A stretch of 64,000 nt of DNA from assembly GCF_900115685.1 (NCBI RefSeq), contig NZ_FOXJ01000001.1:1087796-1151795 (forward strand). Reading direction: 5' to 3'. A model generated the notes under the pieces. It saw only the letters and a list, made by a program, of their open reading frames with translations, did no database searches and was not told the origin of the DNA. Below, in pieces: positions 1,082-10,430 of the stretch (positions within the stretch are counted from its first letter, which is position 1; each line of letters starts with the position of its first letter). The stretch comes from Variovorax sp. 770b2. Lineage in GTDB: Bacteria; Pseudomonadota; Gammaproteobacteria; Burkholderiales; Burkholderiaceae_C. The translations under genes and the position numbers were made by a program.

Positions 1082-1212
1082 GGTGTAACTCCGTGCAGGT
1101 GTGACGCGAATTCTAGGACGGCGCACCTCTCGCAGGAGCGAAATGAAACCGGCGCACCCCGGCCGGCGTATTCATGGCAGCGACTGAAAAACGAAAGACG
1201 GAAATCATCATC

Positions 1213-2787
1213 ATGAACGGCTGGGATCGACTTCTGCGCATGGCGCTCGCAGGCTTTCTGCTGGCGGTGCTTGCTGCCTGCGGCTCGCTGCCGCCGGCGA
1301 AAGAGCGGTCCGCCGAGCACGCGACCTCGGCCGATCCGTCGACCCGGCTCGCGAAGATCGCCGTGGCCTCCACTCCGCCCGGCGAGCATTCCGGCTTCCG
1401 GCTGATGCCGCTGGGCGTCTATTCGCTGGACGCGCGCATCCAGCTCGCGCAGCGCGCCCAGCAATCGCTGGTGGTGCAGTACTACCAGTTGGAGAACGAC
1501 GCCGTCGGCCGCCTGCTGCTGCGCACGCTGCGGGAAGCGGCGGCGCGCGGCGTGAAGGTGCGGGTGCTGGTGGACGACCTCTACACCGTCAAGAGCCAGC
1601 AGCTGCTGCTGGCGTTGTCGGAAACGCCCAACGTGCAGGTGCGGCTCTACAACCCCTTCTGCTGCGGCCGCAACGGCTTTCTCTCGCGCTTCGCGGCCTC
1701 GCCCTGGGAGATCGTGCGGCTCAACCACCGCATGCACAACAAGCTTTTCATCGCCGACGGCGTGATGGCGGTGGTGGGCGGCCGCAACATCGCCGACGAG
1801 TATTTCGTGCTGAGCGAAGCGCAGAACTTCATCGACATGGACGCGCTGGTGGTCGGCAAGGTGGTGCCGCAACTCGAGTCCATCTTCGACGCCTACTGGA
1901 ACAGCGTGCAGGTCTGGCCCATTGCCGACATCGTGAAGGGCGAGGGCGGCCGCATGCCCGGCAGCGCCGAGTTCGACGACTGGATCGGCATGGCCGCGCC
2001 GCCGCCCAGGATCGTGCTGCCGCCGTCCGACATCCTGGGCTACGGCCCGATCGCCGAGGAACTGGACGGTGGCCGCATGGGCCTCCTGTGGGGCGAGGCG
2101 CGCGCCATCGCCGACCCGCCGACCAAGCCCGCGACCATGACGGCCGAGGAAGCCATCTCCACCAGCGTGACGATGAAGGTCTGGGGCCTCCTGATGGACG
2201 CCAAGACCGAGGTCGACCTGACCTCGCCGTACCTCGTGCCGGGCGAGCGCGGCATGGAGGCCTTCGCCGACCTGGCCAGGCGCAACGTCAAGCTCACGCT
2301 GCTGACCAATTCGCTGGCCGCCAACGACGAACCGCTGGTGCACACCGGCTATGCGCGCTATCGCCAGCGGCTGCTCGAAGGCGGCGCCGACCTGTATGAG
2401 CTGAGCCCGCAGCGCACCAGCAAGGGCGAGCGCTTCGGCATGTTCGGCAAGTCGCTCGGCCGGCTGCACGCCAAGACCGCGGCCATCGACAAGACGCGCA
2501 TCTTCATCGGCTCGATGAACCTGGATCCGCGCTCGGCCAGCCAGAACACCGAGATGGGGCTGGTGGTGGACAGCCCGCAGCTGGCGCGCGAGATGCTGCG
2601 CATCATCAACATCAGCAAGCTGCAGAACTCCTACCGGCTGCGGCTGGCCAAGGACACCGGCACGCTGCAGTGGCTCACCAACGATGGCGAGAAGGAAGTG
2701 ATCCTCACCTCCGAGCCCGAGTCGGGCTTCTTCCAGCGCTTCTACAACATGCTCATTGCGCCGATCGTTCCCGAGATGCTGTTGTAG
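1213..2787 (+). CDS. phospholipase D / cardiolipin synthase-like lipoprotein (ClsC-like)
   Basis: A 524-residue phospholipase D superfamily protein. It has an N-terminal lipoprotein signal (lipobox LAAC, Cys23) and two HxKxxxxD motifs: HNKLFIAD followed by VVGGRNIADEYF in the first half and HAKTAAID followed by IGSMNLDPRS in the second. This double-HKD layout is that of cardiolipin synthases and phosphatidyltransferases, and the length and GGRNIADEYF motif resemble ClsC. A role in phospholipid headgroup exchange at the membrane is inferred. The ATG at 1213 starts directly at the signal peptide; an ATG at 1174 is possible. The next gene starts 9 bp downstream, so it probably heads the lipid-modification operon. 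Confidence 0.82.
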   Translation: MNGWDRLLRMALAGFLLAVLAACGSLPPAKERSAEHATSADPSTRLAKIAVASTPPGEHSGFRLMPLGVYSLDARIQLAQRAQQSLVVQYYQLENDAVGRLLLRTLREAAARGVKVRVLVDDLYTVKSQQLLLALSETPNVQVRLYNPFCCGRNGFLSRFAASPWEIVRLNHRMHNKLFIADGVMAVVGGRNIADEYFVLSEAQNFIDMDALVVGKVVPQLESIFDAYWNSVQVWPIADIVKGEGGRMPGSAEFDDWIGMAAPPPRIVLPPSDILGYGPIAEELDGGRMGLLWGEARAIADPPTKPATMTAEEAISTSVTMKVWGLLMDAKTEVDLTSPYLVPGERGMEAFADLARRNVKLTLLTNSLAANDEPLVHTGYARYRQRLLEGGADLYELSPQRTSKGERFGMFGKSLGRLHAKTAAIDKTRIFIGSMNLDPRSASQNTEMGLVVDSPQLAREMLRIINISKLQNSYRLRLAKDTGTLQWLTNDGEKEVILTSEPESGFFQRFYNMLIAPIVPEMLL

Positions 2788-2796
2788 CCTCGGGGG

Positions 2797-3600
2797 ATGG
2801 CGCAGACCTTCACTTCACTGCCCGCCCTGCAGGTCATGCTGTGGGGCGTGCTTTTCTTCGGCGGCATCTACCTGGGATTCGGCGCCATCACCTGGCTGCT
2901 GACCAGGCGGCTGCTGCCGGCAATGGGCATCGGGCGCGTGCTCGATCCGCGGCCGCTGCAGCCGGGGCAGTTGCGGCGGGAGCTCGGGCAGTCGGGCATC
3001 TCGGTGCTGATCTTCGGGCTGGGCATGGTGTTTCCGTGGGGCTTGCTGCAGTTGGGCTGGGCAAGGCTCGACCCGGACGCGGGCTGGCGGCAGATCGCCG
3101 TCGAGATCCTCGTGCTCGCGGTCTGGAACGACGTGCATTTCTGGATCAACCATCGCCTCTTGCACACGCGCCTGCTGCGCCGCTTTCACGGGCCGCATCA
3201 CCGCTCGTTCGTCACCACGCCGTGGGCCACCTACAGCTTTCACCCGATCGAGGCGCTGATGCTGGGCAACGTGATCCTGCTGCCGATGGTGGTGCACGAC
3301 TTCAGCTTCTGGTCGCTGGCGGCGGTGCCGGTGTTCAGCCTGTTCTTCAACTGCGTCGGGCATTCGAACTACGACTTCTTCACCGGGGTGTCGTACAGCC
3401 ACTGGTTCGCCGCGAGCCGCCGGCACCACCTGCACCATGCCTGCCACAACGGCAACTACGGCTTCCAGTTCACCTTCATGGACCGGCTGTTCGGCACGCG
3501 CATCGCAGCGGATGCAGCCGAGCCGCACTTCCAGGCCTTTCGCGAGAAGCAGGCGCGGCAGCAGCAGCAACAACCCGGGCAGCATGGCGCCCCCGCCTGA
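2797..3600 (+). CDS. sterol desaturase / fatty acid hydroxylase family membrane protein
   Basis: A 267-residue integral membrane diiron oxygenase of the fatty acid hydroxylase superfamily. Histidine boxes are intact: HFWINHRLLH (residues 114-123), HGPHH (131-135) and HHLHH (210-214), with a further His in the FNCVGHSNYDFF segment. At least four hydrophobic segments surround them. Family members hydroxylate or desaturate acyl chains, sterols or carotenoids in the membrane; the substrate here is unknown. It starts 9 bp after the ClsC-like gene and its 3' end overlaps the next desaturase gene by 17 bp, which implies translational coupling and a shared lipid substrate. Confidence 0.85.
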   Translation: MAQTFTSLPALQVMLWGVLFFGGIYLGFGAITWLLTRRLLPAMGIGRVLDPRPLQPGQLRRELGQSGISVLIFGLGMVFPWGLLQLGWARLDPDAGWRQIAVEILVLAVWNDVHFWINHRLLHTRLLRRFHGPHHRSFVTTPWATYSFHPIEALMLGNVILLPMVVHDFSFWSLAAVPVFSLFFNCVGHSNYDFFTGVSYSHWFAASRRHHLHHACHNGNYGFQFTFMDRLFGTRIAADAAEPHFQAFREKQARQQQQQPGQHGAPA

Positions 3601-4522
3601 CGCGTCGCGCCGCCTGCCGCGCCTGCGGCATTGGCGTGACTGGCAGAGCCTGGCGTACCTCGTCGCGCTGCCTGCGCTGGCGGCATGGCAATGGGTGAAT
3701 GGCTTGAATCTGCTGCTCTATGCGCTGATGCTTTTCCTCACGCTCGGCATCGGCGTGATCCATCACAACCATGTGCACCTGCGCATGTGGCGCGGGCGGC
3801 GCATGAACCGGCTGACCGACTTCTGGATCACGCTGCTGCAAGGCCATCCGACCTTCGTGTTCTGGCCCGCGCACGTGGCCAACCACCATCGGCACCGGCA
3901 TGGGCCGAAGGACGTGGCGCGCACCTATCGATTCGGTGGCGACACCAACCACCTGTGGGGCTACCTGCTGCATCCGTTCCAAGCGGTGTGGGTGCTGATG
4001 CCGGTCTTCGTCGGCTGGCTCGCGCGGTTGCGGGCGCATCGGCGTGGCGCCTGGCGCTATTGCATCGCGCAGTACGTGCTGTGGCTCGCGAGCTGGGCCG
4101 TGCTGCTCGCGCTCGACTGGCGCAAGGCCCTGGTGTTCGTGATCGTGCCGCAGCTGCACGGCCTGCACTGGCTGCTGGCCACGAACTACCTGCAGCATGC
4201 GCACGCCGACGGCCGCAAGGCGCTGCGCAAGGAGGCGTTGGGCGATACCCCTGGGGGCAGGCTGAACTACGCACGCAATTTCGAAGGGCTGGTGAACCCG
4301 TTGCTGTTCAACATCGGCCTGCACACCGCACATCACGAGAACCCGCATGCCCATTGGTCCGAGCTCACGCACCTGCACCGCACGCGCTACCGCGCCGAGG
4401 TCGATCCCGTGCTCAACGAGGGCGGGCTGGTTCCCTACATGGTGCGGGTCTTCGTGCTGGGGACCGTGTGGCCGCGTTTTCGCAGCCGCTCGCTGATGCC
4501 TCCCGATTCCTCCACTCACTGA
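3584..4522 (+). CDS. membrane fatty acid desaturase
   Basis: A 312-residue membrane desaturase. The three histidine clusters of the family are present: HHNHVH (60-65), HVANHHRHRH (97-106) and HTAHHENPHAH (247-257), between hydrophobic segments at roughly 22-58, 132-147 and 160-200. These bind a diiron centre that abstracts hydrogen from an acyl chain. The ATG at 3584 is chosen because it opens with MAPPPDASRR just before the first conserved region; earlier in-frame codons run deep into the preceding hydroxylase gene. The gene overlaps that neighbour by 17 bp and is followed after 3 bp by the KAS III fusion gene. Regiospecificity is unknown. Confidence 0.82.
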   Translation: MAPPPDASRRLPRLRHWRDWQSLAYLVALPALAAWQWVNGLNLLLYALMLFLTLGIGVIHHNHVHLRMWRGRRMNRLTDFWITLLQGHPTFVFWPAHVANHHRHRHGPKDVARTYRFGGDTNHLWGYLLHPFQAVWVLMPVFVGWLARLRAHRRGAWRYCIAQYVLWLASWAVLLALDWRKALVFVIVPQLHGLHWLLATNYLQHAHADGRKALRKEALGDTPGGRLNYARNFEGLVNPLLFNIGLHTAHHENPHAHWSELTHLHRTRYRAEVDPVLNEGGLVPYMVRVFVLGTVWPRFRSRSLMPPDSSTH

Positions 4523-4525
4523 ACC

Positions 4526-6487
4526 ATGCCTGTTTCATTCCAACGCGTGTACCTCGAGAGCGCCGGCTATTTCATGCCAGGCGAGCCCATTCCCAACGAC
4601 CGCATGGACGCGTACATCGCACCGCTCAACCGCATGTCCGAGCGCATCAAGCGGCGCATCCTGGCGGAGAACGGCATCCTCACGCGACACTACGCCATCG
4701 ATGCGGAAGGCGTGACGCAGCACACCAATGCGCAGCTCGCCGCCGGTGCGATCCGCGATTGCCTGCAGCGCGGCGGCGCGGAGCTGTCGCGCGTGTCGCT
4801 GCTGGCCAGCGGTTCCTCGGGTGGCGACACGCTGATGCCGGGGTTCGCCAACATGATCCAGGGCGAGCTCGCGGCGCAGCCGATGGAGACGCATTCGGTG
4901 CACGGCATCTGCGCGGCCGGCGTCTCGGCGATCCAGACGGCGGCGCAGGGCATCGAGCTGGGTGCGCATCGCTCGGCAATCGCGGTGGCCAGCGAGATGC
5001 CGTCGCGGCTTTTCAAGCGCTCGCGTTTCGCGGCGCGTGGGTATGAAACCGACTTCGACTCGCACTTCCTGCGCTGGATGCTGTCCGATGGTGCAGGGGC
5101 CCTGCTGCTGTCCGACGGCGCACCTGCGCTGGCGGGGGCGCCCGGTCTCCGTCTGAAGCTGAAATGGGTGCACCAGCGCGCGTTCTCGGGGGACTATCCC
5201 GTCTGCATGCAGTTGGGCCTGACCGAGGACCGTGCGCGCGGTCATCTCGACTTCGGTTCGTGGGCCGAGGCCGAAGCCGCCGGTGCGCTGTCGCTGCGGC
5301 AGGACATCCGCCTGCTGCCGCACCTGTTCGACATCGGTATCCACGAATACGCGGGACTCGTGCGCGACGGTTGGGTCGATCCGAAGCGGGTCGATCACTT
5401 CCTGTGCCACTACTCGTCGGAAAAATTCATCCCGGTGGTCGAGGACCTGATGAACAAGGCCGACCTGTCGATTCCGCGCGAGCGTTGGTGGAGCAACCTC
5501 GCGTGGCGCGGCAACACGGGGGCTGCGTCAATCCTGGTCATGCTGGCCGAATTCCTTCATACGAAGACGTTGAAGCCGGGCGAGCAGATCTTCTGCTACG
5601 TGCCCGAGTCGGGGCGTTTCATGGCGGCGTACATGCTGCTGGAAGTCGAAGCGACCGATGCGGTGCCTGCGACAACGGTGGCGCCCCGTGCCGCCGCCGT
5701 GCCGGACGACGATTTCGTCATCGCGCCCCCGCACGATCCCGCCGCCGCCCCTGACGGCCTGGGTGCGCTGTTGACGGAACTGGCCTCCATCTGGCACGAC
5801 TACCGCTCCCGCGTCTGGCGCACGCCGCTGATCCGCCAGATCCGCGAGCGCCGCTTCGCCTTGCCCGACTACCTGAACTGGATGGAGCAATGGGTGCCGC
5901 AGGTGCGCGAGGGCAGCAAGTGGATGCGCGAAGGCGCTGCTTCGCTGAGCGGACCGTACAAGATGCTGGCCTCGCTGATCGACGTGCATGCGGGTGAAGA
6001 GCAGAACGACTTCAACATCCTTTTCAGCGACTACCAGAAGGCCGGCGGCACGGTGGCGCAGATCGACGACCTGCGCCGCAACCCCGGCGGCGAGGCGCTC
6101 AACGCCTACCTGCACGGCCTGGCCGCCACGCGCGACCCGATCGGCCTTTTGGGCGCGATCTACATCATCGAAGGCACGGGCCAGCGGATCGTGCCGGCGC
6201 TGCTGCCGCTCATCAAGGCGAGCGTGAAGCTGCCGCCCGATGCCTTCCGCTTTCTCGAATACCACGGCCACAACGATGAGAACCATCTGAACCGCTGGCT
6301 CGCCGCGGTCGAGATGGTCATGGCCGTGGAAGGCCAGGCCCGCGCGGCCCGCCAGATCATCGACACCGCGCGCCACACGGCCGCGCTGTACCTGATGCAG
6401 TTCCAGCACATCACGGAGCGAATGCCACATGAGCCGCCGGGCCGCCCCAAGGCGAATACCGCAGCCGCAGGCGGAGGCTTCCAATGA
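4526..6487 (+). CDS. KAS III-like ketoacyl synthase fused to a heme-oxygenase-like (HDO) domain
   Basis: A 653-residue two-domain protein. Residues 1-375 are a FabH/KAS III-type condensing enzyme with a complete Cys-His-Asn triad: Cys129 in SVHGICAAG, His295 in HFLCHYSSEK and Asn330 in WRGNTGAAS. An Ala/Pro-rich linker (about 376-410) leads to an all-helical domain (412-630) resembling the heme-oxygenase-like metal oxidase family. Likely metal ligands there are His488/Glu491 (HAGEEQND), Glu549 (IIEG) and the His/Asp/Glu cluster 580-587 (HGHNDENH). The N-terminus should condense or transfer an acyl group and the C-terminus may oxidise the product, as UndA-type HDO enzymes oxidise fatty acids. 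It sits between a desaturase gene (3 bp) and an unknown gene (4-bp overlap). The product is unknown. Confidence 0.78.
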   Translation: MPVSFQRVYLESAGYFMPGEPIPNDRMDAYIAPLNRMSERIKRRILAENGILTRHYAIDAEGVTQHTNAQLAAGAIRDCLQRGGAELSRVSLLASGSSGGDTLMPGFANMIQGELAAQPMETHSVHGICAAGVSAIQTAAQGIELGAHRSAIAVASEMPSRLFKRSRFAARGYETDFDSHFLRWMLSDGAGALLLSDGAPALAGAPGLRLKLKWVHQRAFSGDYPVCMQLGLTEDRARGHLDFGSWAEAEAAGALSLRQDIRLLPHLFDIGIHEYAGLVRDGWVDPKRVDHFLCHYSSEKFIPVVEDLMNKADLSIPRERWWSNLAWRGNTGAASILVMLAEFLHTKTLKPGEQIFCYVPESGRFMAAYMLLEVEATDAVPATTVAPRAAAVPDDDFVIAPPHDPAAAPDGLGALLTELASIWHDYRSRVWRTPLIRQIRERRFALPDYLNWMEQWVPQVREGSKWMREGAASLSGPYKMLASLIDVHAGEEQNDFNILFSDYQKAGGTVAQIDDLRRNPGGEALNAYLHGLAATRDPIGLLGAIYIIEGTGQRIVPALLPLIKASVKLPPDAFRFLEYHGHNDENHLNRWLAAVEMVMAVEGQARAARQIIDTARHTAALYLMQFQHITERMPHEPPGRPKANTAAAGGGFQ

Positions 6488-7395
6488 GCCGAACGCCTGA
6501 ATTCCTGACGCAAGCTCACGACGAGCGCGACCCGAGCCCATGGCTCGCGCTCTACCTGGACCAGAGCACGCCGCTGCCGGACAACGTCAAGTCGGCGTGG
6601 CTCGCCGATTCGAGTTCGGGGTCGCGGCAGTACCTGCTGCCGTTTCTGCGGCCCATTGCACGGCTGACGATCATCCTGATCCAGATCGTGAAGGTGTTCG
6701 TGCCGCGCAACTGGTCGCACTCGATGCTGCTGCACCGCTTTCTCGCGTGGGGGCTCAAGCGCTTCGTGTCGCCGGAGGCCAACTGGCTGATCCTGCGGCA
6801 CTTCCACCTGGGGTCGCAGGTGCTGGCGTTCATCGGGCGCAATTCGCCCGCGCCCGTGGCCACCAACCCGCTGGAGCCGGCAGACATCGACGCGCTGAAG
6901 GACGAGATGTTCCTCAAGCACGACCTGAACCTCTTCAACTTCGTGATCCGCCTGAACACCGCGCTGCGCGAGAAGGGCATTGCGCTGTGCAAGGCGGAGC
7001 AGGTCGATTTTTCGATGATCAAGGAGCCGGGGCTGCGGCTGGAGGACATGCCGCACGGCAAGCTCAATTTCCTCGACCTGCAGAGCGCGATCGAGCTGTT
7101 CACGCCGCTCTACCAACTGATGCTGACCGACAACGATTTCTGGCGCGCGGCCAATTCATTGCAACTGGACGAAACCATAGGCATCTACACGGCGACGATC
7201 CTGAACGCGCCCGAGCACCTGATCCTGGTCAACAACAAGCACCCGCTGGTGCCCCTGTCGACCCTGCGGGCGGGGCACCGGCTGGTGATCCACGGGCTGT
7301 CCACGGAAATGCTCCACAGCCTGCTCCAGCGCATGCAGGCAGCCCAGAAAGCGGGGGAGCCGGAGACGGCCCTCTACGATCAGCCACTTGCATAG
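6484..7395 (+). CDS. unrecognised protein of the lipid operon
   Basis: A 303-residue protein I cannot assign to a family. It starts within the stop of the KAS III-HDO gene (ATGA overlap), so it is translationally coupled to it. One hydrophobic segment near residues 52-72 (FLRPIARLTIILIQIVKVFV) could be a membrane anchor or amphipathic helix. The rest looks soluble and is rich in acidic and Leu residues (DLNLFNFVIRLNTALREKG). Several His and Asp/Glu residues occur (HFHLGSQ, KHDLNLFN), but no recognised motif. The context suggests it binds, carries or modifies the product of the synthase and desaturases; that is inference only. Confidence 0.75.
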   Translation: MSRTPEFLTQAHDERDPSPWLALYLDQSTPLPDNVKSAWLADSSSGSRQYLLPFLRPIARLTIILIQIVKVFVPRNWSHSMLLHRFLAWGLKRFVSPEANWLILRHFHLGSQVLAFIGRNSPAPVATNPLEPADIDALKDEMFLKHDLNLFNFVIRLNTALREKGIALCKAEQVDFSMIKEPGLRLEDMPHGKLNFLDLQSAIELFTPLYQLMLTDNDFWRAANSLQLDETIGIYTATILNAPEHLILVNNKHPLVPLSTLRAGHRLVIHGLSTEMLHSLLQRMQAAQKAGEPETALYDQPLA

Positions 7396-7412
7396 GCGTA
7401 TGCTGCCCCCAG

Positions 7413-7781
7413 ATGCGAACCATGAACACGACCCACAATCCGTCCCCCAAGACCGATCTGGCAGTGACCCAGGTGCTGGCGCAACTGCTGGAACGGCTCG
7501 AACACAGCGCCGTGCCCGTAGGCGCCGAGCAGTACCGCTCGGTGGTCGAGCACCTGGTGCATGAGTTCGAGGATGTCGCGCCAGGCGCCGATCTGGGCCG
7601 CCTGCTGGATGCCTATCCGGCCGCATCCGAGGTTTATGAGAACCTCAACTATCAGCACGCCGGGCTTTGCCGCTCGGCATTGGACGCTTCCCTTGCGGCT
7701 GAAGTCAGCGCCAGGGAAGCCATTGCACGCGCCATGGGCGGTGCCAAAACGAACAAGGACAAGACGCATGGCGAAGGGTGA
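7413..7781 (+). CDS. small hypothetical protein
   Basis: A 122-residue soluble protein of unknown function, acidic and helix-rich, with a central part reading LERLEHSAVPVGAEQYRSVVEHLVHEFED. It begins 17 bp after the preceding lipid-operon gene and its 3' end overlaps the next small gene by 14 bp, so it is likely part of the same transcript. Two ATGs (7413 and 7422) are possible, and neither has a convincing Shine-Dalgarno sequence. Translational coupling to the gene downstream and the absence of any competing frame support it as a real gene. No motif suggests a function. Confidence 0.55.
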   Translation: MRTMNTTHNPSPKTDLAVTQVLAQLLERLEHSAVPVGAEQYRSVVEHLVHEFEDVAPGADLGRLLDAYPAASEVYENLNYQHAGLCRSALDASLAAEVSAREAIARAMGGAKTNKDKTHGEG

Positions 7782-8019
7782 AGTGAAGACGGCAGTGGTG
7801 GCGGACGGCCTGCGCTACAAGACCAAGACACCGGGTTCCCCGTTCCGCGCTTCGGCGTCTTTCAGCGGGGCGACCATGTCCTGCTTCATGTGCGGCAAGC
7901 ACCGCGTGCGCTCGCAATTGCGCACGCGCCAGGTGCTGGGCAAGTCGCAAACCGTCTGCGCGCCTTCGTGCAAGGCGCTGGACGAGGCGCTGGAGCAATC
8001 GGAAGCGTCGTCGGGCTAG
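7768..8019 (+). CDS. small Cys-containing (zinc-ribbon-like) protein
   Basis: An 83-residue basic protein with paired cysteines: CFMC in SCFMCGKHRVRSQL and CAPSC in TVCAPSCKALDEAL. This is a CxxC...CxxxC arrangement that could bind zinc. The start at 7768 (ATGGCGAAGGGTGAAG) lies inside the end of the preceding gene (14-bp overlap), indicating coupled translation. It has no signal peptide or membrane segment. It may bind nucleic acid or a protein partner, but I do not recognise the family. It is the last gene before an AT-rich non-coding gap of 231 bp, and so probably ends the operon. Confidence 0.6.
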   Translation: MAKGEVKTAVVADGLRYKTKTPGSPFRASASFSGATMSCFMCGKHRVRSQLRTRQVLGKSQTVCAPSCKALDEALEQSEASSG

Positions 8020-8124
8020 TTTCAGCTAGCACGAAGCGGCGACGTTTTGGCGACATGCCCGCGTGAACATGTCGCAGATTTCCTTCCACAACGGACTTAA
8101 TCGATATACAGTTAGACACAATTG

Positions 8125-8140
8125 ATGCATGTAATTGCAT
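8125..8140. promoter_or_regulatory. inverted repeat in an AT-rich intergenic region
   Basis: Between 8020 and 8250 the sequence turns markedly AT-rich and contains no gene. It holds the inverted repeat ATGCA-N6-TGCAT, the usual size of a dimeric repressor or activator site. It probably lies in the promoter region of the gene starting at 8251; the regulator is unknown. Confidence 0.3.
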
Positions 8141-8250
8141 TCATTCAAAAGTTCTAATCTGTAGCCGATGACAAATCAATTCCAGCAAGGCCGTGGCTGC
8201 CCGGCATCGGGCGTGGACGTTGACGTTGACGCGTGCGAAAGGGGCCTGCC

Positions 8251-8841
8251 GTGAGCAAGCCACGCCATGTCGTCATGCAGGTGGTCAAGCGCTCCTCGGG
8301 CAGCGCCACGCACCACGTCGAATTCCTCATGGACGACAACTTTGCGGAACGCCTGCGTCAGTTGCGTTCGCTGGTGCCGCCCCTGGGCAGTCTCAACAAG
8401 CAGCGCGATCTGGTGATCGACAAGGTCCGGGTGCGCCTGCCCAACGCCATCTGGCGTTCCGGCAACGAAATCGACATGGACGGGGGCGTCGAGGGCTCCT
8501 GCATCGTCATCGCGGCGGAAGGCTCCTTCAACTGCGGCGGCAAGGACCGCAAGACGCGCGAGAAGCTCGTGACGTACAACTTTTCGATCTCGCGCCTGGT
8601 CGAACTCCACGCCGAGCGTCCCGAGGGCGAGACCCTCTACATCCGCGACGGCACCTTCGCCAACGACGAGCCGGCCGATTCGGCCGCCGGCCGCTGGGTC
8701 GCGTCGATGCACGAGCTCGAAGTGGTGATGCGCATTCCCGACGCGCCCTCGGATTTCGACACCCTGCACGACCTGTCGCTGCGCCCCGAGCAGCAGCAAG
8801 CGGGCAGCGGCGGCGGCGCACACCGCGCCAGCATGTACTAA
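8251..8841 (+). CDS. hypothetical protein
   Basis: A 196-residue protein that I do not recognise. It lacks a signal peptide and obvious membrane segments, and has a basic start (MSKPRHVVMQVVKRSSG) and a Gln/Gly-rich tail. The middle reads like an alternating beta-sheet protein (GSCIVIAAEGSFNCGG, TLYIRDGTFAND). The GTG at 8251 is preferred because AAAGGGG lies 6 bp upstream; a GTG at 8233 is in frame but has no such site. It stands alone behind an AT-rich promoter region and ends convergently with the metal-dependent hydrolase gene, overlapping its stop by 4 bp. Confidence 0.6.
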   Translation: MSKPRHVVMQVVKRSSGSATHHVEFLMDDNFAERLRQLRSLVPPLGSLNKQRDLVIDKVRVRLPNAIWRSGNEIDMDGGVEGSCIVIAAEGSFNCGGKDRKTREKLVTYNFSISRLVELHAERPEGETLYIRDGTFANDEPADSAAGRWVASMHELEVVMRIPDAPSDFDTLHDLSLRPEQQQAGSGGGAHRASMY

Positions 8842-9680
8842 GACGCAGCAGCCGCTTCGGGCGCAACGCCCACGGGCGTGTACTGCGCGCGGTTGTCGGC
8901 CAGCCAGCGCGTGGACAGGCTGCTGTCCTGCTGTGCCGGATGGAAGTCCGCATGCAGGTAGTCGCGCCAGCCGCGCAGGTTGCCGCGCAGCAGGCCGTCC
9001 TTGCCCAGCAGGATGCGCGCCGCGCTTGTCCAGGTCGCCCACTTCCACAGCTGTTTTTCGTGGCGCAGGTTGTCGATGGTCTGGTGCATCAGGTCGCCGA
9101 GGAACATCACGGTCACGCGGCGGAACCAGCGCCTGCGCCATTCGTCGGAGCCGCCCGTGGCCTTGTAGATGTCGAAGGCGACCGACTTGTGCTCCAGCTC
9201 TTCGGCGCTGTGCCACAGCCACATGGTGCGCAGCCGCGGCTCCGCGCCGTCGAGGATTTCGGGGCGGGCCAGCAGCCATTCGGCGAACATCGCGGTGAAG
9301 TGCTCGGTGGCGGCCGTGACCGCCAGCGCGTGGCGCGGATCGGCTTCTTCCATCAGCGCCATGCGCTTGTTGGCACGCGCCGTCCAGCCGTCGACCAGTC
9401 CCTGTTCCTCGAGATGGTTGTTGAAGAGCGAGTGGATGCGTCGGTGCGTGGCCTCCTGGCCGATGAAGCCGCGCACGTCGGCGCGGTACTTTTCCTGCAC
9501 CTCGGTCGGCAGCGTGGCCACCGCATCGCGCACGGCGTCGATGAAGAATTGCTCGCCGAAGGGGAAGCTCATCGACAAGGCATTGAAGAAGGCGCTGGAG
9601 AATGCATCGCCGCCGCACCAGTTGCGGGCAAAGGGCGATTGCAGGTCGATCAGCAGGCGGCGGACAACGAGTTCAGTCAT
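8838..9680 (-). CDS. predicted metal-dependent hydrolase (PF10118-type, ferritin-like)
   Basis: A 280-residue helical protein of the family annotated as predicted metal-dependent hydrolase. Candidate metal ligands lie in helices in ferritin-like order: EATHRRIH (near residue 74), EHFTAMFAEW (near 122) and WHSAEELEHKSVAFDIY (near 150). The family is usually annotated as a hydrolase, although the E/H pattern also fits a diiron oxidase; the reaction is not established. The gene is divergent from a TetR-family regulator 120 bp away. The interval between them holds two matching palindromes, so it is probably repressed by that regulator and induced by a hydrophobic ligand. Confidence 0.7.
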   Translation of the reverse strand: MTELVVRRLLIDLQSPFARNWCGGDAFSSAFFNALSMSFPFGEQFFIDAVRDAVATLPTEVQEKYRADVRGFIGQEATHRRIHSLFNNHLEEQGLVDGWTARANKRMALMEEADPRHALAVTAATEHFTAMFAEWLLARPEILDGAEPRLRTMWLWHSAEELEHKSVAFDIYKATGGSDEWRRRWFRRVTVMFLGDLMHQTIDNLRHEKQLWKWATWTSAARILLGKDGLLRGNLRGWRDYLHADFHPAQQDSSLSTRWLADNRAQYTPVGVAPEAAAAS

Positions 9681-9716
9681 GAAAACAATCCTCGGAAGAT
9701 CGTGGGAAGAAAGGCT

Positions 9717-9776
9717 GGTACAGGTTCGTACCGCATGCCTCCATGGTGCGGGTCGATGCTGGTACTGTCAAGTACC
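9717..9776. promoter_or_regulatory. paired operators for the adjacent TetR regulator
   Basis: Two 16-bp inverted repeats share the same arms, GGTAC-N6-GTACC. They lie at 9717-9732 (spacer AGGTTC) and 9761-9776 (spacer TGTCAA), 44 bp apart centre to centre. They sit between the divergent hydrolase gene (start 9680) and the TetR gene (start 9801), the expected place for autoregulatory operators that also control the neighbour. Confidence 0.65.
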
Positions 9777-9800
9777 GAGACGTAGGAAAATGTGCCATCC

Positions 9801-10430
9801 ATGAGCGACACCATCGAAAAAACCGTGGCCTCCAAGTCCACCGAGGGCACGGAAAGCGAGCACTATGCGCGCCTTCTCCAGGGCATGGCGCACGCCGTGG
9901 CGGCCAAGGGCTACGCCGACACGACCATCGCCGACATCGTGCGCGAGGCCGCCGTCTCGCGCCGCACGTTCTACGAGCACTTCAGCACCAAGACCGAGTG
10001 CCTGATCGCGCTGTACGAAACCGCCAGCCGCCTCGCGCTGCAAGCCGTGAGCGAGGCCTTCGACCCCGCGCAGCCCTGGCACGCGCAGGTCGAGCAGGCG
10101 ATGACCGCGTACTTCGACTACCTGGCGCAGGACCCGGTGCTGCTGCGCACGCTCTTCGTCGAGATCCTGGGCCTGGGCATGCCGGGCCTCGTGGCGCGCC
10201 GCCGCGTCAATGACGAGATCGCCAACTTCATCCAGGTGGCCATCAACAGCAGCGACGTGGAATGCGGCCCCGCGGCCCACCTGACCAGCGAAATGGCGAT
10301 GACGGTGGTCGGCGGCATCAATGAACTGGTGCTGCAGGCCATCGAGCAGAACCGCGCCGGCGATCTGCGCGAACTGGTGGCGCCCGCCACGCGCCTCGTG
10401 CGTGCCGTGGCGGCCGAGAGCCGGCGCTAG
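9801..10430 (+). CDS. TetR/AcrR family transcriptional regulator
   Basis: A 209-residue TetR-type repressor. The N-terminal helix-turn-helix spans about residues 19-65 and contains the typical segment TTIADIVREAAVSRRTFYEHFSTKTECLIALY. The C-terminal part is a helical ligand-binding and dimerisation domain. The ATG at 9801 is preferred; a GTG at 9792 would add three residues. It is divergent from the ferritin-like hydrolase gene, and two identical-arm palindromes lie between them. Its 3' end overlaps the last codons of the convergent efflux permease gene by 4 bp. The ligand is unknown. Confidence 0.85.
   Translation: MSDTIEKTVASKSTEGTESEHYARLLQGMAHAVAAKGYADTTIADIVREAAVSRRTFYEHFSTKTECLIALYETASRLALQAVSEAFDPAQPWHAQVEQAMTAYFDYLAQDPVLLRTLFVEILGLGMPGLVARRRVNDEIANFIQVAINSSDVECGPAAHLTSEMAMTVVGGINELVLQAIEQNRAGDLRELVAPATRLVRAVAAESRR

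What the first reader, a model, noticed from the sequence alone, without database searches (positions are those of the whole stretch)
2797..8019. Compact lipid-modification operon that may make an undescribed fatty-acid-derived product
A diiron hydroxylase, a membrane desaturase, a KAS III-type synthase fused to an HDO domain and an unrecognised protein follow each other with overlaps or gaps of 3-9 bp. A ClsC-like phospholipase D-family lipoprotein sits directly upstream and two small unknown proteins follow downstream. Acyl activation, condensation, desaturation and oxidation functions in one transcript look like a biosynthetic pathway for a modified lipid, alkene or membrane component. I know of no described pathway with this set.
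Basis: partly seen in the sequence, partly recalled or inferred. Interest (0 to 1): 0.72.

Follow-up and report, generated by a model that had tools for sequence, protein, structure and literature searches.

The report
Ketosynthase–oxidase operon for new lipid
In a Variovorax genome, as in relatives from other groups of proteobacteria, a ketosynthase related to ring-forming enzymes is encoded together with a predicted metal-dependent oxidase and a protein of unknown function, and the set is likely to make an undescribed oxidised lipid.

Summary
The operon is real and tightly packed: membrane hydroxylase (2797-3600), membrane desaturase (3584-4522), StlD/DarB-related ketosynthase fused to a PF14518 heme-oxygenase-like (HDO) domain (4526-6487), and DUF6999 (6484-7395). 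Comparison separates core from passengers. Of 399 genomes of the window's order, the 17 with DUF6999 are exactly the 17 with the full ketosynthase-HDO protein, neighbours in all 17. In a second class (alphaproteobacterial by named hits) 6 of 6 genomes with DUF6999 keep ketosynthase, HDO, DUF6999 in order. Exceptions: one orphan DUF6999 beside a transposase gene, and one genome with decayed remnants. Hydroxylase and desaturase are adjacent in 16 and 15 of the 17 but were not found in the alpha loci. The phospholipase D and two small proteins are Variovorax neighbours. The same genome has a separate dar-type locus: a DarA-like protein lies within 1 kb of the ketosynthase in 8 of 8 DarB-type loci fetched, and in none of the other 106 sequences. 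Best reading: a dialkylresorcinol-like ring assembly whose oxidative step is likely done by the HDO (with DUF6999) instead of DarA, then tail desaturation/hydroxylation. Chemistry and product are inferred. DUF6999 has a confident model but no detected PDB relative.

The parts
2797..3600 (+). Membrane FA_hydroxylase / sterol-desaturase-type protein, 267 aa
   Evidence: PF04116 80.7 bits; HxxxH and two HxxHH boxes, hydrophobic segments; near the core in 16 of 17 genomes of the order
3584..4522 (+). Membrane fatty-acid desaturase-type protein, 312 aa (ATG at 3584 chosen)
   Evidence: PF00487 71.9 bits (scanned from 3590); His boxes; near the core in 15 of 17
4526..5665 (+). Ketosynthase domain (residues 1-380) related to StlD/DarB; C129, H295, N330 kept
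   Evidence: PDB StlD 8e-60 by sequence, top Foldseek match; NF005293 317 bits, below its 450 cut-off; residues
5723..6487 (+). HDO domain (PF14518, about residues 400-653) fused to the ketosynthase; candidate metal ligands among H488, E492, D495, E523, E549, H580, D584, H587
   Evidence: PF14518 36.5 bits; these residues invariant in 12 aligned sequences
6484..7395 (+). DUF6999 protein, 303 aa, helical; core partner
   Evidence: PF22523 437.8 bits; AF2 pLDDT 87.9, pTM 0.88; no PDB fold match with E<=0.001
1174..2787 (+). Two-domain phospholipase D-like protein, probable lipoprotein; Variovorax neighbour, not core
   Evidence: PF13091 127.3 bits; 39 of 84 loci, 38 of them Variovorax and one a 32% partial match in a Bordetella locus
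7413..7781 (+). Small ORF, 122 aa (the part from 7443 was scanned), no family; neighbour, not core
   Evidence: 36 of 84 loci
7768..8019 (+). Small Cys-containing ORF, 83 aa; weak PF12156 below cut-off; neighbour, not core
   Evidence: 38 of 84 loci

Best explanation
The operon at 2797-7395 encodes a ketosynthase fused to a heme-oxygenase-like domain, DUF6999 and two membrane hydroxylase/desaturase-type proteins, and together they would likely build an oxidised ring lipid of the dialkylresorcinol/cyclohexanedione type. Shown: the genes, their packing, the recurring order ketosynthase-HDO-DUF6999, the kept ketosynthase Cys/His/Asn and HDO His/carboxylate residues, and that no DarA-like gene was found nearby. 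Inferred: (1) the ketosynthase joins two fatty-acyl-derived thioesters from primary metabolism into a 1,3-cyclohexanedione-like intermediate; (2) the HDO domain, with a dimetal centre and O2, oxidises it (aromatisation and/or oxidative decarboxylation or hydroxylation), the step ascribed to the DarA aromatase in dar clusters; (3) DUF6999 acts on the same intermediate, as a second enzyme or a membrane-side carrier; (4) in the window's order the membrane desaturase and hydroxylase then tailor the alkyl tails. The product would be a modified phenolic or quinol-like membrane lipid or signal.
For: Ketosynthase closest to StlD (206 bits; next different protein 37) and to StlD in fold search. Co-occurrence: 17 of 399 genomes of the order have DUF6999 and the same 17 have the full ketosynthase-HDO protein, neighbours in all. 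Second class: 6 of 289 have DUF6999, all 6 with KS, HDO, DUF6999 in order. Order and strand kept in 35 of 35 loci compared (chosen because they hold the set). Pairwise distances correlate (KS-HDO r=0.96, HDO-DUF 0.87, KS-DUF 0.83; lowest HDO-desaturase 0.76; no background genes as control). Two Variovorax genomes hold hydroxylase-DUF6999 and desaturase-KS-HDO at separate places and keep all four. A DarA-like protein lies within 1 kb of the KS in 8 of 8 DarB-type loci fetched (8 of 12 KS-only hits) and in 0 of 106 other sequences, window included (E<=1e-5). DarB as 'DAR-cyclase' and DarA as 'DAR-aromatase': PMC3949708, passages. 3H/3C as the majority HDO ligand set: PMC13108848, passages.
Against: The ketosynthase fails NCBI's StlD/DarB cut-off (317 vs 450; DarB model 256 vs 550), whereas the genome's own DarB-type protein reaches 586 on the first but also fails the second (461), so ring formation may not be conserved. 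The DarA-like protein of L149 matched no Pfam or NCBIfam family; its name rests on position and on the dar table of PMC3949708. No ACP, ligase or export gene seen in the operon. One genome (G1014) keeps DUF6999 with no KS or HDO found, beside a transposase gene, so DUF6999 may act alone or be a leftover. One Variovorax (L055) lacks the hydroxylase (best other match in its genome 32% over part). Metal ligands are unassigned; the spacing of the first carboxylate does not fit the CADD motif as I recall it. The Pseudoalteromonas HDO is not called by Pfam, though NCBI names it iron-containing redox enzyme.
Confidence: 0.42

Rival explanations
1. Linear product: the ketosynthase makes a linear beta-keto acid or head-to-head product and the HDO domain cleaves it UndA-like to an alkene, ketone or shortened acid, which desaturase and hydroxylase modify.
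For: UndA, the first validated HDO, is a fatty acid decarboxylase (PMC13108848, start of abstract, passages); the ketosynthase lies outside the curated ring-forming set.
Against: Best sequence and fold match is StlD, with OleA and PqsD behind; none of the ten ORFs scanned is an OleB/C/D-type partner.
Confidence: 0.2
2. Protective redox function: the trio makes or is an O2/peroxide-handling system or membrane antioxidant, comparable to DtpC of Acinetobacter, whose HDO domain is needed for desiccation survival.
For: DtpC precedent: alleles with changed predicted metal ligands no longer improved survival (PMC13232832, abstract and section 6).
Against: DtpC is co-transcribed with a catalase gene (abstract), not with a ketosynthase; the KS catalytic residues are kept here, which points to biosynthesis. 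Not exclusive of a phenolic lipid product.
Confidence: 0.15
3. Phospholipid remodelling: with the phospholipase D protein upstream, the operon modifies existing phospholipid acyl chains.
For: Gap of 7-10 bp to the phospholipase D gene in 34 of 38 loci with both; in one alpha locus an MFS-acyltransferase-AMP-ligase gene follows DUF6999.
Against: Apart from one partial match, phospholipase D was not found in the non-Variovorax loci, and it lies elsewhere in L041, L042 and L047; the Aas-like gene was matched only in its own locus among the six alpha loci.
Confidence: 0.1
4. The set makes a diffusible signal or antibiotic (pyrone, tetronate or cyclohexanedione) rather than a membrane lipid.
For: Dialkylresorcinols and cyclohexanediones are discussed as possible cell-to-cell signals (PMC6403133, passage); AbyA1, a tetronate-condensing enzyme, is the next protein after StlD in the fold search.
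Against: Membrane hydroxylase and desaturase suggest a long-chain, membrane-bound substrate (inference); no other ORF cluster was shared by more than 8 of 22 loci (not annotated), so no receptor or exporter gene is constantly linked.
Confidence: 0.13

Closest known systems
Dialkylresorcinol (dar) clusters, DarA-DarB, including a dar-type locus in this same genome (L149)
   Same: Related ketosynthase with the same catalytic residues; likely fatty-acid-derived substrates
   Different: DarB-type KS with a DarA-like protein within 1 kb in 8 of 8 loci; here HDO fused, DUF6999, membrane hydroxylase and desaturase, no DarA-like gene found; separate KS branch
StlD ketosynthase (PDB 5gk0; Photorhabdus stilbene biosynthesis, recalled)
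   Same: Top sequence and fold match
   Different: About a third identical; the solved StlD chain is about 400 residues without an HDO part; partners differ
Heme-oxygenase-like dimetal oxidases (UndA, SznF, CADD, PolF, DtpC)
   Same: PF14518 domain, invariant His/carboxylate set
   Different: Joined to a ketosynthase in one chain; the words 'ketosynthase', 'fused' and 'fusion' do not occur in the main text of the 2026 review
DUF6999 (PF22523)
   Same: Member, 437.8 bits
   Different: Family has no function; here given a recurring pathway context

Membership tests
StlD/DarB family beta-ketosynthase (NCBIfam NF005293) | Score at or above curated cut-off 450 | tested here: not met
   317.2 bits; three alpha and one gamma partners 322-372, also below; two DarB-type controls 586.5 and 567.7
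StlD/DarB family beta-ketosynthase (NCBIfam NF005293) | Thiolase-fold KS with Cys/His/Asn | tested here: met
   C129, H295, N330 invariant in 14 aligned KS
Dialkylresorcinol DarAB pathway | DarA-like aromatase encoded beside the ketosynthase | tested here: not met
   0 of 106 sequences incl. window at E<=1e-5; 8 of 8 DarB-type loci positive; the loci are at most about 21 kb long, some short
Dialkylresorcinol DarAB pathway | Forms cyclohexanedione or resorcinol | not testable with these tools
   needs enzyme assay
HDO superfamily (PF14518) | Profile match over gathering score | tested here: met
   36.5 vs 28.9 bits
HDO superfamily (PF14518) | 3 His / 3 carboxylate dimetal ligand set | tested here: inconclusive
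   H488, H580, H587 and E492, D495, E523, E549, D584 invariant in 12 sequences; which bind metal is not settled
DUF6999 (PF22523) | Profile match over gathering score | tested here: met
   437.8 vs 27 bits
FA_hydroxylase (PF04116) and FA_desaturase (PF00487) | Profile match and His boxes | tested here: met
OleABCD head-to-head olefin pathway | OleB/C/D partners | tested here: not met
   none recognised by Pfam among the ten ORFs scanned at 1174-10430; elsewhere in the genome not tested

The most novel reading that the evidence does not exclude
A new way to finish ring lipids from fatty acids: a ketosynthase with its own built-in dimetal oxygenase and a new-fold partner enzyme (DUF6999) makes an oxidised alkyl-quinol or resorcinol membrane lipid, spread across alpha-, beta- and gammaproteobacteria and so far unseen.
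Probability: 0.3. Interest if true: 0.8.

Novelty: new variant of a known kind. Interest (0 to 1): 0.6.

Why it matters
It gives DUF6999, a family with thousands of database hits (3396 proteins at E<=0.001; 798, perhaps overlapping) and no function, a recurring pathway partner, and it pairs a ketosynthase of the ring-forming kin with a dimetal-oxidase-type domain in one chain. If the predicted chemistry holds, a small gene set, portable to a laboratory host, would yield an unknown class of bacterial lipid and a new HDO reaction on lipid substrates. Genome miners may already see it: Variovorax sp. S12S4 was reported with a 'resorcinol' cluster without similarity to known clusters, besides an arylpolyene-resorcinol hybrid (PMC10946135, passage); that the former is this operon is my inference.

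Tried and rejected
Rejected: phospholipase D and the two small proteins as pathway members (Variovorax only but for one 32% partial match; elsewhere relative to the operon in L041, L042 and L047). Rejected: ordinary FabH; the genome has a FabH-like ORF of its own (L001, sequence shown), and the KS here scores 47 bits on the fabH model against a cut-off of 292.

Not done: adjacency in Caulobacter vibrioides, which rings for PF22523 and PF14518 as a control genome, was not looked at. The genome taxonomy used by the tool seems to put the window's order inside its gamma class (my reading). Hydroxylase and desaturase were sought outside the order only with the window's proteins at E<=1e-4, so remote ones could be missed.

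Papers: abstract, section 6 and passages of PMC13232832; passages only of PMC13108848, PMC3949708, PMC6403133, PMC9872631, PMC10946135. Other papers were seen in search listings only, and several lists were cut (20 of 38, 15 of 27, 8 of 107, 6 of 8). The 2013 paper on cyclohexanedione-forming ketosynthases was seen only as a reference-list entry and may already contain KS-HDO proteins. Subscription journals are mostly missing from the library.

Full report
The window lies in a genome of 7.45 Mb that is Variovorax-like: nearly all named hits of the ketosynthase-HDO protein are Variovorax. At 2797-7395 four genes follow each other on the plus strand: an FA_hydroxylase-type membrane protein, a fatty-acid-desaturase-type membrane protein, a 653-residue ketosynthase-HDO fusion and DUF6999. 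Spacings are -17, +3 and -4 bp, and a phospholipase D-like gene ends 9 bp upstream.

The ketosynthase is not an ordinary KAS III. Its best solved relative is StlD (206 bits; next different protein 37), its best NCBIfam model is the StlD/DarB subfamily (317 bits), and Foldseek on the predicted model lists StlD chains first. It keeps Cys129, His295 and Asn330. It does not reach the StlD/DarB cut-off of 450, nor do the three alpha and one gamma partners scanned (322-372 bits), while the DarB-type protein elsewhere in the same genome scores 586 (that protein in turn stays below the stricter DarB model, 461 vs 550). It is kin to, but not filed as a member of, that curated family. In a maximum-likelihood tree of 43 rows the HDO-linked ketosynthases of the window's order and of the second class form two well supported groups (99/100 and 100/100) apart from eight DarB-type ones, whose own group is weakly supported (77/72).

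The HDO domain passes Pfam's cut-off for PF14518 and matches the heme-oxygenase-like structure 3dde. Across 12 sequences (five from the window's order, six from the second class, one Pseudoalteromonas), three His and five carboxylates are invariant: H488, E492, D495, E523, E549, H580, D584, H587. That is enough for the 3H/3C set that a 2026 review gives as the majority type (PMC13108848, passages), though I cannot say which carboxylates bind. It is the only PF14518 match in this genome at E<=0.001.

DUF6999 gives a confident helical model (mean pLDDT 87.9, pTM 0.88) without a detected PDB relative. Polar residues invariant in 12 such sequences include R105, H106, H146, D147, D198, N224, D229, N251, H253, R266, H270 and E275, which looks more like an enzyme site than a scaffold (inference). 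One hydrophobic segment passes the threshold used (51-69).

Linkage. In 80 named loci fetched with a DUF6999 profile (at least 527 relatives existed and the best 80 were kept) plus four from the first genome search, tblastn found DUF6999 in 84, KS and HDO in 82, hydroxylase in 81, desaturase in 80, but phospholipase D in 39 and the small ORFs in 36 and 38. The missing ones are L012 (second class), L050 (3.3-kb contig), L055 (hydroxylase absent; one search found only a 32% partial match elsewhere in its genome) and L043 and L046 (split operon). KS and HDO are one frame in 81 of 82. These loci were selected by DUF6999 and are mostly Variovorax and Achromobacter, so the draw of whole genomes matters more: of 399 genomes of the order 17 had DUF6999 and, searched again, exactly those 17 had the full-length KS-HDO protein, as neighbours. 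Hydroxylase is near it in 16 and desaturase in 15 of the 17 (missing in G657, and in G722 and G698). Ten other genomes, and a second locus in G000 and G897, had KS-only hits.

Beyond the order, 6 of 289 genomes of a second class (alphaproteobacterial by the named hits) had DUF6999, and all 6 have KS, HDO and DUF6999 as separate genes in that order, with no hydroxylase or desaturase match at E<=1e-4. In the window's own class (369 genomes) 7 had DUF6999: the window and G082 (full operon), G961 (KS-HDO fused, then DUF6999), G1017 (three genes), G1232 (three genes, the last cut by the contig end), G994 with decayed fragments of KS and DUF6999, and G1014 with DUF6999 beside a transposase gene and no match to the window's KS-HDO protein in its genome at E<=1e-6. 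A Pseudoalteromonas record, the only hit among 72,556 plasmid records, carries the same trio, its DUF6999 at 322 bits. Order and strand are the same in 35 of 35 loci compared, chosen for holding the set. Two Variovorax genomes hold hydroxylase-DUF6999 at one place and desaturase-KS-HDO at another, the KS-HDO frames open at 637 residues each: the operon came apart but all four genes stayed.

Contrast with dar clusters. The same genome has, at L149, a DarB-type ketosynthase next to a protein that I call DarA-like, an ABC ATPase, a BtrH_N-domain protein and another ketosynthase. This resembles the dar table of Azoarcus (PMC3949708, passage), where DarB is called DAR-cyclase and its neighbour DarA DAR-aromatase. 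The DarA-like protein itself matched no Pfam or NCBIfam model, so its name rests on position. It is found within 1 kb of the KS in 8 of 8 fetched DarB-type loci (8 of the 12 KS-only hits) and in none of 106 other sequences, window included. So one ketosynthase branch goes with DarA and the other with HDO plus DUF6999. This exchange of partners is the main ground for proposing that the HDO takes over the oxidative step; the chemistry itself is inferred.

Verdict. A real, conserved gene set with a core trio and, in the window's order, membrane tailoring enzymes, most likely biosynthetic. The literature searches made here showed no description in the listed titles and abstracts, within an open-licence library only. 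It is a new variant of the StlD/DarB-type pathways, with a possible new class of lipid behind it.

Noticed in passing
L157:6621-7178 and L167:2623-3186: A 185-aa hydrophobic protein with many conserved His/Glu (66% identical between the two) lies directly upstream of the ketosynthase in two gamma loci and matches no Pfam family at E<=0.1 (L157 copy); it may stand in for the hydroxylase/desaturase.
   Followed up: partly
L012:5700-9098: An MFS-acyltransferase-AMP-ligase fusion (Aas/LplT-like) follows DUF6999 in one locus of the second class; not matched in the other five such loci (one of them short).
   Followed up: partly
L166:6892-8909: Orphan DUF6999 beside a transposase-like gene; no KS-HDO match in that genome.
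   Followed up: yes
L169:1317-2358: Decayed fragments of KS and DUF6999 side by side, as if the set was lost together.
   Followed up: partly
L043, L046 with L106, L107: In two Variovorax genomes the operon is split into hydroxylase-DUF6999 and desaturase-KS-HDO at separate places.
   Followed up: yes
L055: A Variovorax operon without the hydroxylase gene; the genome has only a 32% partial match elsewhere.
   Followed up: yes
window 8838-9680 (-) and 9792-10430 (+): PF10118 predicted metal-dependent hydrolase divergent from a TetR-type regulator downstream of the operon; matched in 30 and 28 of the 84 loci.
   Followed up: no
L149:4046-11071: Dar-type cluster (DarA-like, DarB-type KS, BtrH_N protein, ABC ATPase, second KS) in the window's own genome.
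   Followed up: partly
window 7768-8019: 83-aa ORF with two Cys pairs, weak PF12156 match (19.4 bits, cut-off 27), 78-100% identical in the loci that hold it.
   Followed up: no
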